Of a stretch of DNA of 32,308 nt, positions 1 to 18,957 are shown piece by piece. Every line of letters begins with the position of its first letter. Within the stretch, counting starts at the first letter, position 1. Source of the DNA: Sphingobacterium thalpophilum (GTDB lineage Bacteria > Bacteroidota > Bacteroidia > Chitinophagales > Chitinophagaceae); the NCBI GenBank assembly GCA_945871875.1, contig CAMBYC010000022.1, positions 1-32,308 on the forward strand, read 5' to 3'. The notes beneath the pieces are model-generated. The model was not told the origin of the DNA. It worked only from the letters and a program-made list of their open reading frames with translations, and did not search any database. Both the position numbers and the translations under genes were made by a program.

Positions 1-1767
1 TGTATAATTTTCATCTTCTTCCTCAATCAACAAATCATCTAAAAATTCATAACAACTATCATTGATGCTTTCAATCAATTGGTTTTTTAATTTGCCATGC
101 GTTTTTGCAAATTTTTCAACAGATTTAAAGGAAAGTGTGAATTCTTGTAAAGCAAACATTTTTAAAAGATTATCTTGTATCTCCGATAATGATATTTCCG
201 CTACATAGTGATTATATGATTGTTTCTCACTTTTTGGAATCGCAGTCTTTTCTATTTTTGTTTTTGATTTTACCTTTTCTTGATTTTTAATAGATAAATC
301 TTGCTCTTCATCTTTTAAATATTCACTCAACAAATTAACTGTATCTGCATGTTTACCTTGAACTTCATTTATTGTATCTAAATCAATATTAATTTTCTTT
401 CTCACAACTTCATAAATTGTTGGAATTGCTTTAGTAGCCTTTTCCAAATCTTTATCTATAATTAAATCATCTATGATTTTTTCATACTGTGCCAATTGAC
501 TTTTTTCTGAAAATAGCACTTTTGTATATTCTCTTGGGATTGGTTTTCTTTTAAAGATTCCAGTAAAATCATTTTGAAGGGCATATTGTAAGTATAATTT
601 TAAAGCAGTAAATCTATCGTGGTTAAGTATAAACTTCGAAGCATCTAAATAGATGCTTGCTATTTGTGGATGTTTGGAATTTTGTATACACAACTTATCA
701 ATAGCTTTGCAAAATAATTCTAGATTGCCATCAAAGTTGACTTTTAAGTTTTCAAATATTGATTTCCAACGATTAACATTGATATAATTTAAAGCAATTT
801 CATCTTCTTCACGTAAAGGTTCAATTTCATTAATATATGGTGCAATTGCTATTTCTATTTTTTGTAAGACTAAAGTTTCAAAGGCTTTTTTAGCTTCTAT
901 ATGATATGAATTTAATTTTTTTATGCTTTTGGGTTTTATAAAATATTTCTTTCTTACTTCATTTTCAGCTGCATAAAAGATACAATGAACAAATTCTTCC
1001 AATGAGGTGTCTATAGAATTAAAATAGTTTCTACTGCCATTTCTAAATCTATGGTTTTTTCTAGCAACAAGGTCTGCAACCGTTCCAAATGCTATTTCCA
1101 TTGATGTTTTTTCTTGTACAAATAATCTACCTAATGCACTATATGTCTTTAAATAAAGTTTAACAATTTCAATATGACAATGCGTAATATCAGTGAAATT
1201 GTTATTTTTAATATTTAATCTATTAAGGTGTATTACTTCGTGGTCTGATAGTTTTAATTTTATTTTATACCTGTAGCCCAATTTCCAATCGTTATCAAAT
1301 AGGCTTCTGTAATCTCCCTCTTTTTTTATTTCCGTAATAAGTTTTTCTAAACCAACATTATCTCCAACTTCTATTAATATTTGTCTAAGAAAAAAGTTGC
1401 AATACATTCTGCATACATCGTAATGTTTTTTAATAACAAAAACTCTTTGCTTAAGAAGGACTAAATTTTTATCTTTTTCATATTCATTTATAAAATCAAA
1501 AAGAAGTATAAAAACATAAGTAGGAGATCGGTAATCTAAAATTGTTAACTCACCCTTATAAAAGCGATCTTTAAATATTTTATAAAAATTGATTTGATTT
1601 TCGCTAGCAGTTTCAATAGCAGAATAAGTGAAAGTTGATAACAAGTTCCAAGAAGGGATGTACTTTTTTAATCCTATAAATTTTGCTTTTTGCAATAAAC
1701 TATATGATTGATTGGTTACATCAATTATAGATTCGTCATCAAAAAGGGATAGATTTTTATTGCTCAC
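1..1767 (-). CDS. TerB_N/TerB_C-type protein, 3' end outside window
   Basis: I translated the minus strand by hand. The frame is open from a GTG at 1767 to base 1, giving 589 codons with no stop; it is absent from the ORF track because it leaves the window. The N-terminal third contains 'NQINFYKIFKDRFYKGELTI' followed by an aromatic segment ending 'FDFINEYEK', which resembles the TerB_N pattern of a Q..WY.WR motif and an E/D-L/F-IN motif. The visible C-terminus, 'LIESINDSCYEFLDDLLIEE', resembles the INE...LIEED ending of TerB_C, so only a few residues are probably missing. A lysine- and glutamate-rich linker lies between. The family is linked by comparative genomics to tellurite/stress and DNA-processing or defence gene clusters, usually with an ATPase or helicase. 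No biochemical role can be assigned. GTG is chosen because no in-frame ATG exists upstream and a TAA lies about 30 bases before it; a TTG in between is the alternative. Confidence 0.62.
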   Translation of the reverse strand, partial: MSNKNLSLFDDESIIDVTNQSYSLLQKAKFIGLKKYIPSWNLLSTFTYSAIETASENQINFYKIFKDRFYKGELTILDYRSPTYVFILLFDFINEYEKDKNLVLLKQRVFVIKKHYDVCRMYCNFFLRQILIEVGDNVGLEKLITEIKKEGDYRSLFDNDWKLGYRYKIKLKLSDHEVIHLNRLNIKNNNFTDITHCHIEIVKLYLKTYSALGRLFVQEKTSMEIAFGTVADLVARKNHRFRNGSRNYFNSIDTSLEEFVHCIFYAAENEVRKKYFIKPKSIKKLNSYHIEAKKAFETLVLQKIEIAIAPYINEIEPLREEDEIALNYINVNRWKSIFENLKVNFDGNLELFCKAIDKLCIQNSKHPQIASIYLDASKFILNHDRFTALKLYLQYALQNDFTGIFKRKPIPREYTKVLFSEKSQLAQYEKIIDDLIIDKDLEKATKAIPTIYEVVRKKINIDLDTINEVQGKHADTVNLLSEYLKDEEQDLSIKNQEKVKSKTKIEKTAIPKSEKQSYNHYVAEISLSEIQDNLLKMFALQEFTLSFKSVEKFAKTHGKLKNQLIESINDSCYEFLDDLLIEEEDENYT

Positions 1768-2089
1768 CTTGAAATTCAAATTTTTGTAAATTTCAAATTA
1801 TTAGCTGGTAAAAATTGATTTTTATGATTTTATTTGTAAAACATTTTCCACAAAATCAATAATAAATAAATCATCTTACAGGTTTTGCTAAACTGATATT
1901 TATTGGCTAATTGTTTATATTATGTACGAGTGCAGCTTTAATTGATTCTGCAGATTGTATAATTACAATTGATTATCAAAAAAAATAAAATAAATCTTTT
2001 AATATTAAAATCTATTTTCTAAGTTTTGAGAAAAATGGATGATAAAATAACTGGCAATACAAAAAAGTATTATTTAAAATAGAACTGAA
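1768..2089. other. AT-rich intergenic gap at the accessory/core boundary
   Basis: These 322 bases contain no convincing ORF, tRNA or transposon end. Two inverted repeats are visible: one directly upstream of the TerB-type gene (listed separately) and a small one at 1954-1969 (ATTGTA-TAAT-TACAAT). An 8-bp direct repeat AATTGATT occurs at 1940 and 1967. The gap should hold the 3' end of the rng transcript and the promoter of the TerB-type gene, but I see no exact TAnnTTTG element upstream of that gene. Confidence 0.5.
1769..1796. promoter_or_regulatory. 8-bp inverted repeat abutting the GTG start
   Basis: Arms TTGAAATT (1769-1776) and AATTTCAA (1789-1796) are perfect complements separated by 12 bases. 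The repeat ends one base from the GTG start of the minus-strand TerB-type gene. It could be an operator or an RNA hairpin covering the ribosome entry site. In AT-rich DNA it could also be chance. Confidence 0.3.
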
Positions 2090-3637
2090 TTAGAGCCTAA
2101 TTTCTTCTTCATTTTTATCGTAGAAGTGCCATTCAGTAAGATGAAAGGTATTATTTGATTTTACATTCAAGGAAATTTTATGTTTCCAAGCCCATTTTCT
2201 ACGGATGGATAATAAACCTTTGGTCAAAAAGGCAAACATAATTGGATGCACAATCAGTGTTAGTGATTTGTGGTTTTGAAGTGATAAGTAACTGAGATTT
2301 TTTTCAATATCATCTTCAAGAATTAGGGCGGAAGATATTTTACCTGTACCATGACAAGAAGGGCAAACCTCTTGTGTGTTGATGTTGACTTCAGGTTTCA
2401 TCCTTTGTCTGGTGATCTGCATCAATCCAAACTTAGAAATTGCCAAAACTGCGTGTTTAGATCTGTCTGAAAGCATGAATTGCTCCATAGAATCTGCAAG
2501 TTTCTTTTTGTTGTCGGGGAGTTTCATATCAATAAAATCCACCACAATGATGCCACCTAAATCTCGAAGTCTTAACTGGCGAGCAATTTCTTCAGCAGCT
2601 TCAAGGTTTGTTTGCAATGCATTTTCTTCTTGGTTATTGCCTACGCTTTTGTAGCCACTATTTACATCAATTACGTGTAAAGCTTCAGTATGTTCTACAA
2701 TAAGATAAGCACCACTTGGAAGGTTAACGGTTTTGCCAAATGCACCTTTTACTTGTTTTGTAACGCCAAAATGATCAAAAATTGGAGTATTTCCAGTATA
2801 AAGGGTTACGATATCAAGCTTATCTGGAGCAATTTTTTGTATGTATGCTCTAGTATCACTGTAAATGGTTTTATCATTAACAATAATGCGATTAAAATCT
2901 TCATTCAACAAATCCCTAAGCATGCTTGTAGCTTTGGTTTGTTCGCTAAGAATTTTTTCTGGTGCAACAGCTCCTTTAAGATTTTTTTGAATTAGTTGCC
3001 AATTGGCTACAAGATTGTTTAAGTCTTGGTGAAGTTCAGATGTGTTTTTCCCTTCTGCAGCGGTTCTAACAATTACACCAAAGTTTTTAGGTTTGATGGA
3101 TTCTACAATCTTTTGCAAACGTTTTCTTTCTTCGGCAGAGTGAATTTTACGCGAAACTGCGATAATATCATTAAATGGAGTTACCACTACAAATCTACCT
3201 GGTAATGAAATTTCACAACTTAATCTAGGACCTTTGGCTGCAATTGGTTCTTTTAAAATTTGTACTAAAACATTAGGTTTTGAACCCAATACTTCTGTGA
3301 TTTTTCCAGTTTTTACAATTTCTGCTTCTACATTAAACTTAGAATAATCAAATCCATTGGCAGTTTTGTCGCTAATTGACAACTGTGTAAACTTGAGTAA
3401 AGATTTAGCGTAAGGGCTTAAATCTGTGTAGTGTAGAAAAGCATCTTTTTCAAAGCCTACATCAACAAATGCAGCATTTAGACCTGGAATAAGTTTTTTA
3501 ACTTTTCCCAGATATAAATCACCAACAGCGAAGCGGGCATCTGCTTTTTCATTGTGCATTTCCACCAATCGCTTGTCTTCTAACAAGGCTATTTCAACGC
3601 CTTGTGGTGCTACATTTATAATTAATTCTTTGTTCAA
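2090..3637 (-). CDS. rng: Ribonuclease G (Rne/Rng family)
   Basis: This is a 515-residue endoribonuclease of the RNase E/G family, acting in rRNA maturation and mRNA decay in the cytoplasm. The N-terminus 'MNKELIINV' is typical. An S1-like RNA-binding segment follows ('VGDLYLGKVKKLIPGLNAAF'). The catalytic aspartates lie in 'HVIDVNSG' and 'GGIIVVDFIDM', and the zinc-link motif is 'CPSCHGTG'. The length fits RNase G and there is no long RNase E scaffold tail. The start must be TTG: a TGA lies two codons upstream in frame and no in-frame ATG intervenes. It is the last gene of an HU-TPR-microprotein-rng series, separated from the microprotein by a terminator-like hairpin that would sit in its leader. 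Confidence 0.95.
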   Translation of the reverse strand: MNKELIINVAPQGVEIALLEDKRLVEMHNEKADARFAVGDLYLGKVKKLIPGLNAAFVDVGFEKDAFLHYTDLSPYAKSLLKFTQLSISDKTANGFDYSKFNVEAEIVKTGKITEVLGSKPNVLVQILKEPIAAKGPRLSCEISLPGRFVVVTPFNDIIAVSRKIHSAEERKRLQKIVESIKPKNFGVIVRTAAEGKNTSELHQDLNNLVANWQLIQKNLKGAVAPEKILSEQTKATSMLRDLLNEDFNRIIVNDKTIYSDTRAYIQKIAPDKLDIVTLYTGNTPIFDHFGVTKQVKGAFGKTVNLPSGAYLIVEHTEALHVIDVNSGYKSVGNNQEENALQTNLEAAEEIARQLRLRDLGGIIVVDFIDMKLPDNKKKLADSMEQFMLSDRSKHAVLAISKFGLMQITRQRMKPEVNINTQEVCPSCHGTGKISSALILEDDIEKNLSYLSLQNHKSLTLIVHPIMFAFLTKGLLSIRRKWAWKHKISLNVKSNNTFHLTEWHFYDKNEEEIRL

Positions 3638-16069: not shown

Positions 16070-16140
16070 AAGTAGTAGTTAGTTGTTAGTAATTAGTAGT
16101 TAGGGGCTGATTTTCAAAAACTAACTACTAACTACTACTT
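16070..16140 (-). terminator. Repeat-derived hairpin at the carB stop codon
   Basis: The right arm (16121-16140, CTAACTACTAACTACTACTT) is complementary to TAGTAGTTAG-type sequence at 16070-16103, with about 17 bases of loop. Read on the minus strand, the stem starts at the carB TAG and is followed by CCCCGTTTTTT. It is probably a rho-independent terminator for carB built from a member of the dispersed repeat family. Confidence 0.6.
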
Positions 16141-18957
16141 GCTCAAATGCATACTTCTCTCCTTATACAACTGCCTAAAATAAGGATCTCTCAAATCTTT
16201 GATAAATCGAATGGCTTCTCCAGTTGATTTCATCTCTGGACCTAACTCTTTGTTTACTCCAGGGAACTTATCAAAACTGAAAACTGGTTCTTTTATGGCG
16301 AACCCTGTTAGTTTTTTCTCATACTCAAAATCAGTGAGCTTGTGTGTGCCCATCATAATTTTTGTTGCAATATTTAAATATGGTATTTGATATGCCTTGG
16401 CTATAAATGGCGTTGTTCTTGATGCTCTTGGATTTGCTTCTATCACATATACATTGGTGTTTTTTATCGCAAACTGTATATTGATTAATCCCTTTATGTT
16501 TAATGCTCTTGCAATCTTTTCTGCGTAATATTCCATAGTGGTAACTTCCATCGGACTCAAATTAAACGCCGGCAGCAAAGCATGTGAATCTCCACTATGA
16601 ATGCCCGCCGGTTCTATATGTTCCATCACGCCCATTACATGGAAATTCTCTCCGTCAAAAATACCGTCTATCTCCGCTTCTTGACATCTATCCAAGAAAT
16701 GATCTATCAATATTTTATTATCTGGCAAATGTTTTAATAAACTTACTACTGCCGATTCTAATTCATCATCGTTTATTACAATACGCATTCTTTGTCCGCC
16801 CAATACATAAGATGGACGAACCAAAACTGGGTAACCTACAGATTTTGCTACTTCTATGGCTTCATCTACCGTATAAGCAGTTCCGTAGTTTGGATATGGA
16901 ATGCTTAATTCTTTCAACATATCACTGAATCTGCCGCGATCTTCGGCTATATCCATATTGTCGAAAGATGTTCCAATTATCTTGATGCCTTTGTTGTGTA
17001 GTTTTTCTGCTAATTTTAGGGCTGTTTGTCCACCCAATTGAACAATTACACCTTCAGGTTTTTCGTGTTCTACAATTTCCCAAAGATTTTCCCAAAACAC
17101 TGGTTCAAAATACAATTTATCTGCAATGTCAAAATCTGTGGAAACGGTTTCTGGATTACAATTCACCATTATAGCTTCATAACCTGCTTCTTTAATAGCC
17201 AATAACCCATGAACACAACAATAATCAAATTCAATACCCTGACCAATTCTATTTGGCCCAGAACCTAGAACAATTATTTTTTTCTTTTCGGAAACGATAC
17301 TTTCGTTTTGTCCGCCATTTTCAAATGTGCTATAGAAATAAGGGGTTTTGGCTTCAAATTCTGCAGCACAAGTATCTACCATTTTAAATACCCTTGTAAT
17401 TCCAGCAGCTTTTCTTTTTTCGTAAAGAGTGTCTGCCGTTCCATCTCTCATAATCAAACAAATCTGTTCGTCAGAAAAACCATGTTGTTTGGCTTTTTTG
17501 ATCAAATTGGTTGGAATGGTTTCTAATTTATAACGTGCTATTTCTTTTTCAATAACACAAATCTTCTCTATTTCATATATAAACCAGCGGTCAATTAGAG
17601 TTGCTTGTACAATGGTTTTTACACTAATGCCCATCATTAAGGCATCTTTGATTCTAAAAATCCTGTCCCACTTTGGCACTTTCAGGTATTCAACAATTTC
17701 TTCTGCATGCATCATGCTTTTGCCGTAATAACCCAAACCAACAGCATTGTTTTCTAAACTTTGACAAGCTTTTTGCAAAGCCTCGGTAAAGCTTCTTCCA
17801 ATTGCCATTACTTCACCAACTGATTTCATTTGCAATCCGAGGGTATCGTCTGCACCTTTAAATTTATCAAAATTCCAGCGAGGTAGTTTTACAATCACAT
17901 AATCTAATGCCGGTTCAAAATATGCAGAGGTTGTTTGGGTAATCTGATTGCTCAATTCATCCAATGAAAACCCAAGTGCTAGTTTTGCAGCAATTTTAGC
18001 AATTGGGTATCCTGTGGCTTTTGATGCCAACGCTGAAGATCGACTAACCCTTGGATTAATTTCAATGGCAATAATTTCTTCAGTTTCGGGATTTAATGCA
18101 AATTGTACATTACATCCACCAGCAAAATTTCCTAAATCGCGCATCATTCTAATTGCTGTATTGCGCATCAATTGAAAAGCTGTATCGCTTAACGTCATCG
18201 CCGGTGCCACCGTAATGGAATCTCCAGTGTGCACGCCCATTGGATCAAAATTCTCAACTGTACATATAATTACTACATTGTCATTGGCATCTCTTAACAA
18301 TTCCAACTCAAATTCTTTCCAGCCTAAAACAGCTTTCTCAACCAATACTTCGTGAATTGGGGAAGCTGCCAAACCTCTTTTTAAAGCTTCATCTAAATCT
18401 TTCTTACCGTGAACAAATCCACCACCCGTTCCTCCAAGTGTAAATGATGGTCTAATAACCAATGGAAATCCAATTTCTTGTGCAAATTCTTTTCCTTCTA
18501 ACCAAGAATTTGCAGTGCGTGCTGGGGCAACCTGAATATCCATCGCAATCATCCATTGCCTAAACTTTTCACGATCTTCAGCTTTATCAATTGCTTTGAT
18601 GTCTACCCCAATCAATCTTACCCCATATTTTTCCCAAATGCCTAATTCGTCAGCTTCTTTGGCAAGATTCAACGCAGTTTGTCCACCCATAGTTGGCAAA
18701 ACTGCATCTATTTGATTTTCTTCTAATATTTGTTCTATCGATTCTACTTTCAAAGGCAGCAAATACACCTTATCTGCCATCATAGGATCGGTCATTATAG
18801 TAGCTGGATTGCTGTTTATCAATATCACTTTTACGCCTTCTTCACGTAAACTCCTCGCAGCCTGTGTACCAGAATAATCAAATTCACAAGCTTGTCCTAT
18901 AATAATTGGACCCGAACCGATAATCAATACTGATTGGATAGATTTGTCTTGTGGCAT
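16135..18957 (-). CDS. carB: Carbamoyl-phosphate synthase large subunit, no MGS domain
   Basis: CarB makes carbamoyl phosphate from ammonia (supplied by CarA from glutamine), bicarbonate and two ATP for pyrimidines and arginine. Both ATP-grasp halves are present: the first with 'SVLIIGSGPIIIGQACEFDYSG' and 'RPSFTLGGTGGG', the second with 'KKIIVLGSGPNRIGQGIEFDYC' and 'RPSYVLGGQRM'. The protein has 940 residues against about 1070 in E. coli and ends just after 'GPEMKSTGEAIRF', so the C-terminal MGS-like domain that binds UMP and ornithine is missing. I recall similarly short CarB proteins in other Bacteroidota, so this is probably a lineage trait. carA is not in the window. The stop codon lies in a dispersed repeat. 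Confidence 0.96.
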   Translation of the reverse strand: MPQDKSIQSVLIIGSGPIIIGQACEFDYSGTQAARSLREEGVKVILINSNPATIMTDPMMADKVYLLPLKVESIEQILEENQIDAVLPTMGGQTALNLAKEADELGIWEKYGVRLIGVDIKAIDKAEDREKFRQWMIAMDIQVAPARTANSWLEGKEFAQEIGFPLVIRPSFTLGGTGGGFVHGKKDLDEALKRGLAASPIHEVLVEKAVLGWKEFELELLRDANDNVVIICTVENFDPMGVHTGDSITVAPAMTLSDTAFQLMRNTAIRMMRDLGNFAGGCNVQFALNPETEEIIAIEINPRVSRSSALASKATGYPIAKIAAKLALGFSLDELSNQITQTTSAYFEPALDYVIVKLPRWNFDKFKGADDTLGLQMKSVGEVMAIGRSFTEALQKACQSLENNAVGLGYYGKSMMHAEEIVEYLKVPKWDRIFRIKDALMMGISVKTIVQATLIDRWFIYEIEKICVIEKEIARYKLETIPTNLIKKAKQHGFSDEQICLIMRDGTADTLYEKRKAAGITRVFKMVDTCAAEFEAKTPYFYSTFENGGQNESIVSEKKKIIVLGSGPNRIGQGIEFDYCCVHGLLAIKEAGYEAIMVNCNPETVSTDFDIADKLYFEPVFWENLWEIVEHEKPEGVIVQLGGQTALKLAEKLHNKGIKIIGTSFDNMDIAEDRGRFSDMLKELSIPYPNYGTAYTVDEAIEVAKSVGYPVLVRPSYVLGGQRMRIVINDDELESAVVSLLKHLPDNKILIDHFLDRCQEAEIDGIFDGENFHVMGVMEHIEPAGIHSGDSHALLPAFNLSPMEVTTMEYYAEKIARALNIKGLINIQFAIKNTNVYVIEANPRASRTTPFIAKAYQIPYLNIATKIMMGTHKLTDFEYEKKLTGFAIKEPVFSFDKFPGVNKELGPEMKSTGEAIRFIKDLRDPYFRQLYKERSMHLSK

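What the first reader, a model, noticed from the sequence alone, without database searches (positions are those of the whole stretch)
1..1767. TerB_N/TerB_C-type protein at the window edge, possible stress or defence module
A frame of at least 589 codons, absent from the ORF track, carries motifs resembling TerB_N near its start and TerB_C at its end. Proteins of this architecture are associated by comparative genomics with predicted DNA-processing, stress or phage-defence clusters, often beside an ATPase or helicase. It sits against housekeeping genes and so probably marks the edge of an accessory island. The long middle part has no domain I can name.
Basis: partly seen in the sequence, partly recalled or inferred. 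Interest (0 to 1): 0.62.

Follow-up and report, generated by a model that had tools for sequence, protein, structure and literature searches.

The report
Shango anti-phage operon cut by contig
The cut-off gene at the window's left edge is the first gene (sngA) of Shango, a three-gene bacterial system already known to protect against viruses; its other two genes sit on another small contig of the same genome, so this is an ordinary, if divergent, new member of a known kind.

Summary
Window 1-1767 (minus) is an open 589-codon frame, cut by the contig end, with a strong TerB_C domain (Pfam, E 4e-22). TerB_N is not detected by profile search (not even at E<=1) and survives only as a faint collinear resemblance. 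PADLOC names the protein SngA, first component of the Shango anti-phage system (E 1e-26). Each is the only SngA, SngB and SngC in the genome. The two contigs fit as one sngA-sngB-sngC operon with an assembly gap of about 0.5 kb; the join is inferred, not sequenced. The same order is contiguous in 13 of 14 strong relative loci. Placement is accessory: 2 of 60 relatives hold the protein, and none of 13 same-genus genomes has it next to rng. SngA diverges far faster than SngB and SngC and usually has an N-terminal membrane helix, which the window copy lacks. Verdict: Shango, divergent Bacteroidota branch; known kind, low interest.

The parts
1..1767 (-). sngA (Shango component A), 589 codons, C-terminal ~14 codons cut off by the contig end; start GTG 1767 or TTG 1779
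   Evidence: PADLOC SngA 1.1e-26, residues 81-589; 29-38% identical to 12 SngA relatives
4..414 (-). TerB_C domain (PF15615), residues 452-588
   Evidence: Pfam E 4.2e-22; genome search
1318..1686 (-). Divergent TerB_N-like stretch, residues ~28-150; not a significant match on its own
   Evidence: Collinear in profile-profile alignment with canonical SngA; not significant alone; predicted helices
1768..2089 (.). Spacer of 20.2% G+C between rng stop and sngA; holds an out-of-frame ATG at 1874 (MIYLLLILWKMFYK, then stop) where relatives encode an N-terminal membrane helix
   Evidence: Sequence read directly; composition; relatives
2090..3637 (-). Neighbour: Rne/Rng family ribonuclease (housekeeping anchor; not part of Shango)
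   Evidence: TIGR00757 1.1e-135; present in 35 of 36 relatives

Best explanation
The window gene is sngA of a Shango anti-phage operon (sngA-sngB-sngC) lying downstream of rng in a Chitinophagales-type genome and split by an assembly gap; the remainder is on contig C215. Shown here: family membership of all three proteins, single copies in the genome, gene order in relatives, accessory distribution. Known from the literature: Shango reduces plating of several phages. Inferred: SngC, a superfamily 2 helicase of the Lhr/BrxHI type, and SngB, an ATPase of the BrxC/BrxD family, form a machine directed at phage DNA or its replication; SngA is the mostly helical, fast-evolving partner that senses infection or positions the machine, usually held at the inner membrane by an N-terminal helix. 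In this genome SngA lacks the anchor, so the complex would be cytosolic or use another membrane contact.
For: PADLOC SngA 1.1e-26; on C215 SngB 2.5e-103 against 2.5e-18 for BrxD, and SngC 1.5e-205 against 1.2e-132 for BrxHI; BrxC_BrxD, DEAD and Helicase_C in Pfam. Only one SngA, one SngB and one full-length SngC in the genome. C22 ends in the last codons of sngA running outward and C215 begins about 161 codons into sngB running inward; sngB and sngC overlap by one base as in relatives. All three genes contiguous in 13 of 14 strong relative loci. Presence is patchy: 2 of 60 relatives, 17 of 399 genomes of the order. A relative's locus also carries CBASS-type effector and TRIP13 matches. sngA G+C is 26.6%, lowest of the window genes measured (window 33.7%). 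Shango activity: PMC10250203.
Against: The C22-C215 join is not sequenced. The TerB domain (PF05099) that gives Shango its usual description is not detected in the window SngA or its Bacteroidota relatives. The missing membrane helix could mean a damaged gene start. I found no phage assay for a Bacteroidota Shango in the papers read. No step of the mechanism was tested here.
Confidence: 0.9

Rival explanations
1. A decaying Shango copy: sngA has lost its N-terminal membrane helix through damage upstream of the present start, so the system no longer works.
For: All 12 nearest SngA relatives examined have an N-terminal helix and the window copy is the exception; it has no ATG start, and an out-of-frame ATG at 1874 encodes a short hydrophobic peptide followed by stops.
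Against: 589 sngA codons and 711 sngC codons are free of stops, with the SngC helicase motifs and the SngB DE motif present. Anchor-less SngA with intact operons exists elsewhere (L068, L069, L074, L079). A short hydrophobic peptide is expected by chance in 20% G+C DNA.
Confidence: 0.15
2. The gene belongs to a BREX-type system rather than Shango, since SngB and SngC resemble BrxC/BrxD and BrxHI.
For: Pfam names the ATPase family BrxC_BrxD; BrxHI matches SngC at 1.2e-132.
Against: Shango models score far better for both (344.5 against 64.4 bits; 683 against 442 bits), and a SngA is present.
Confidence: 0.03
3. A stress or metal-response Ter module unrelated to defence.
For: TerB-family domains were first linked to tellurite resistance and stress (established knowledge).
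Against: The gene set is the three-gene Shango arrangement with reported anti-phage activity; no other Ter genes were seen beside the operons read.
Confidence: 0.04
4. C215 is not linked to C22 (for instance a plasmid or a contaminating contig), and the window SngA stands alone.
For: The genome is in 216 contigs with 1.9% estimated contamination; the contig ends share no sequence.
Against: Complementary truncation, single copies, similar low G+C (27-31%) and the common operon order in relatives.
Confidence: 0.06

Closest known systems
Shango (SngABC; P. aeruginosa PA14 and E. coli; PMC10250203, Millman et al. 2022)
   Same: Same three genes: TerB-type SngA, SngB ATPase, SngC DEAD/DEAH helicase; PADLOC models hit all three
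   Different: Bacteroidota SngA shows only TerB_C by Pfam; TerB_N and central TerB are not detectable. The window copy also lacks the usual N-terminal membrane helix.
BREX proteins BrxC/BrxD and BrxHI
   Same: SngB is in the BrxC_BrxD Pfam family; SngC is a BrxHI-like helicase
   Different: Much weaker scores than the Shango models; a SngA is present
Lhr helicases (PDB 5v9x, 7lhl)
   Same: Closest solved structures to SngC by sequence, E 3.5e-29
   Different: SngC (711 residues) is shorter and encoded in a defence operon
Bunzi and other TerB-containing defence systems
   Same: TerB-type protein in a defence operon (PMC10952713)
   Different: Only the Shango set of ATPase and helicase partners was found here

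Membership tests
Shango | SngA, TerB-type protein as first gene | tested here: met
   PADLOC SngA 1.1e-26, TerB_C 4.2e-22
Shango | SngB ATPase | tested here: met
   C215:3-833, PADLOC SngB 2.5e-103, Pfam BrxC_BrxD 7e-88; the N-terminal third with the nucleotide-binding loop lies in the gap
Shango | SngC DEAD/DEAH helicase | tested here: met
   C215:833-2968, complete, PADLOC SngC 1.5e-205
Shango | The three genes adjacent on one strand | tested here: inconclusive
   sngB-sngC contiguous; the sngA-sngB junction falls in an assembly gap; contiguous in 13 of 14 strong relative loci
Shango | Central TerB domain (PF05099) in SngA | tested here: not met
   No Pfam match in window SngA or 12 relatives; above cut-off in 3 of 4 canonical SngA scanned. 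A descriptive domain; the PADLOC SngA model matches without it
Shango | Anti-phage activity | not testable with these tools
   Reported for PA14 Shango; not known for this branch
   No match at E<=1; weak collinear resemblance only
   E 4.2e-22
BREX | Better match to BREX than to Shango models | tested here: not met
   SngB 344.5 vs BrxD 64.4 bits; SngC 683 vs BrxHI 442 bits

The most novel reading that the evidence does not exclude
Bacteroidota Shango is a distinct branch in which SngA is a fast-evolving sensor, typically anchored in the inner membrane and sometimes with an SH3 domain on the far side that could read the cell wall, coupled to a well-conserved ATPase-helicase core; the window copy is an anchor-less form.
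Probability: 0.25. Interest if true: 0.45.

Novelty: new member of a known kind. Interest (0 to 1): 0.22.

Why it matters
It settles an unannotated edge gene as part of a known defence system and adds a divergent Bacteroidota branch. The comparison shows two testable features of Shango that I did not find reported in the papers read: SngA usually carries an N-terminal membrane helix (18 of 23 sampled, by hydropathy), and it diverges far faster than its partners (median identity 34% against 78% and 57%), as a sensor in an arms race might. A 2026 review still lists the mechanism of Shango as unknown (PMC12926258).

Tried and rejected
TerB_N search of the genome and at E<=1 in the protein: nothing. 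NCBIfam on SngA: nothing. Viral-contig scans for SngA and SngB of this branch: none, though the peptide patterns were narrow. Search of the own genome for a gene found downstream of rng in relatives, to locate the far flank: none. Rfam on the first 6 kb: none. Structure prediction from a four-sequence alignment gave an all-helical model of modest confidence (mean pLDDT 62.8, pTM 0.45) with TerB_C poorly modelled, and a PDB fold search without significant match, so no structural claim is made. PDB sequence search with the SngA profile gave nothing convincing. C22 and C215 ends share no k-mers, as expected for a real gap. A housekeeping reading was rejected because of the patchy distribution.

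Full report
What is there. The window is a complete contig, G000:C22:1-32308, so its left edge is an assembly break. On the minus strand a frame of 589 codons runs from that edge to GTG 1767 or TTG 1779. It carries TerB_C at its end (Pfam 4.2e-22) and is named SngA by PADLOC (1.1e-26, residues 81-589). TerB_N is not detected. SngA is a component of Shango, a three-gene anti-phage system of a TerB-like protein, an ATPase and a DEAD/DEAH helicase. In P. aeruginosa it gave 10-100-fold lower plating of many phages and strong protection in liquid culture (PMC10250203).

The missing partners. In the genus relative G020 (the same locus appears as Pollutibacter soli JS81) the homologue is followed at once by a 437-residue ATPase and a 710-residue helicase. 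Searching the window's own genome with that ATPase found one match, at the very start of contig C215 (76% identical, residues 163-437). C215 holds the rest of sngB, then a complete sngC overlapping it by one base. PADLOC calls them SngB (2.5e-103) and SngC (1.5e-205), well ahead of BREX BrxD and BrxHI; Pfam gives BrxC_BrxD, DEAD and Helicase_C. Each component occurs once in the genome (the other helicase matches are weak paralogues). The two contigs therefore fit as one operon with about 0.5 kb missing. That join is inference: the contig ends share no k-mers and no spanning sequence is held.

Relatives. Among 60 relatives only two, both in the same genus, have the protein. A profile search of 399 genomes of the order matched 17, some weakly. 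In 13 of 14 strong loci sngA, sngB and sngC are contiguous and tightly packed; in the fourteenth (L059) sngB is short (194 residues) and no sngC follows in the under 1 kb left to the contig end. Neighbours in G020 include CBASS-type effector and TRIP13 matches, consistent with a defence island. SngB relatives are found on 690 plasmid records, mainly Klebsiella and Salmonella; some may be BREX ATPases, but all eight loci opened had a large protein, the ATPase and a helicase in the Shango order.

Placement. rng is found in 35 of 36 relatives. In 13 same-genus loci the DNA downstream of rng holds other genes, many of them resembling SusD/SusC-type outer-membrane proteins by eye, and never sngA. 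G020 has its Shango on a different contig from rng. sngA has the lowest G+C of the window genes measured (26.6% against 33.7% overall). The genes of the window that were scanned are housekeeping or core: mutY, gldD/gldE, purH, carbamoyl-phosphate synthase, ftsH, alaS.

Anatomy of SngA. Canonical SngA proteins from Fusobacteriota and Pseudomonadota have TerB_N, mostly a central TerB, and TerB_C. The Bacteroidota branch has only TerB_C by Pfam (13 of 13). Whole-length profile alignment of the two groups is collinear, with window residues 28-150 lying over TerB_N (E 1.3e-6 overall), but TerB_C drives the significance: alone it gives 6.4e-8, while the other stretches are not significant. So a worn TerB_N is plausible and unproven. 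A predicted model is all-helical with modest confidence and no fold match.

Two comparative points. First, an N-terminal hydrophobic helix is present in the 12 nearest relatives and in 6 of 8 plasmid-borne ones, by a simple hydropathy scan; G020 and G033 also have an SH3 domain ahead of it, and L075 looks alike by eye. The window protein begins exactly where the conserved core begins and has no such helix; L068, L069, L074 and L079 also lack it. Whether this is loss, damage or a real soluble form cannot be told. Second, across 14 operons median pairwise identity is 34% for SngA, 78% for SngB and 57% for SngC. SngA is the variable part, which fits a sensor or a phage-facing component.

Mechanism. 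Shown: families, order, distribution. Known: Shango restricts phages; a 2026 review still lists its mechanism as unknown (PMC12926258). Inferred: SngB and SngC are an ATPase-helicase machine acting on phage DNA or its replication; SngA senses infection or positions the machine, often at the membrane.

Verdict. Interest is low apart from the SngA anchor and the rate asymmetry.

Noticed in passing
L006:8159-10681, L007:4710-7262 and L075:2325-4985: SngA of two genus relatives has a bacterial SH3 domain (Pfam SH3_3) before the membrane helix; Persicobacter L075 looks alike by eye. A possible cell-wall-reading sensor on an anti-phage protein.
   Followed up: partly
L006, L007, L041, L060-L069, L008 and window 1-1767: Strong rate asymmetry within the operon: median identity SngA 34%, SngB 78%, SngC 57% over 91 pairs.
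   Followed up: yes
window 1768-2089: A 322-base spacer of only 20% G+C between rng and sngA, with an out-of-frame short hydrophobic peptide that may be a remnant of a membrane helix or chance.
   Followed up: partly
L059:867-1451: In G350 the sngB frame next to sngA is only 194 residues and no sngC follows before the contig end: a possibly broken Shango copy.
   Followed up: no
L070:4464-6128 and L071:3671-5416: Proteins that share only a short stretch with the TerB_N-like part of SngA and otherwise look repeat-rich; no SngB or SngC beside them in the DNA held.
   Followed up: no
window 16135-18957: The carbamoyl-phosphate synthase large subunit frame is 940 residues and ends near model position 924-931 of 1052-1058, so it looks short at its C-terminus.
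   Followed up: no
L006:16642-19340: CBASS-type SAVED/peptidase effector and TRIP13-like ATPase matches about 2.5 kb beyond the Shango operon of the Pollutibacter soli locus.
   Followed up: no
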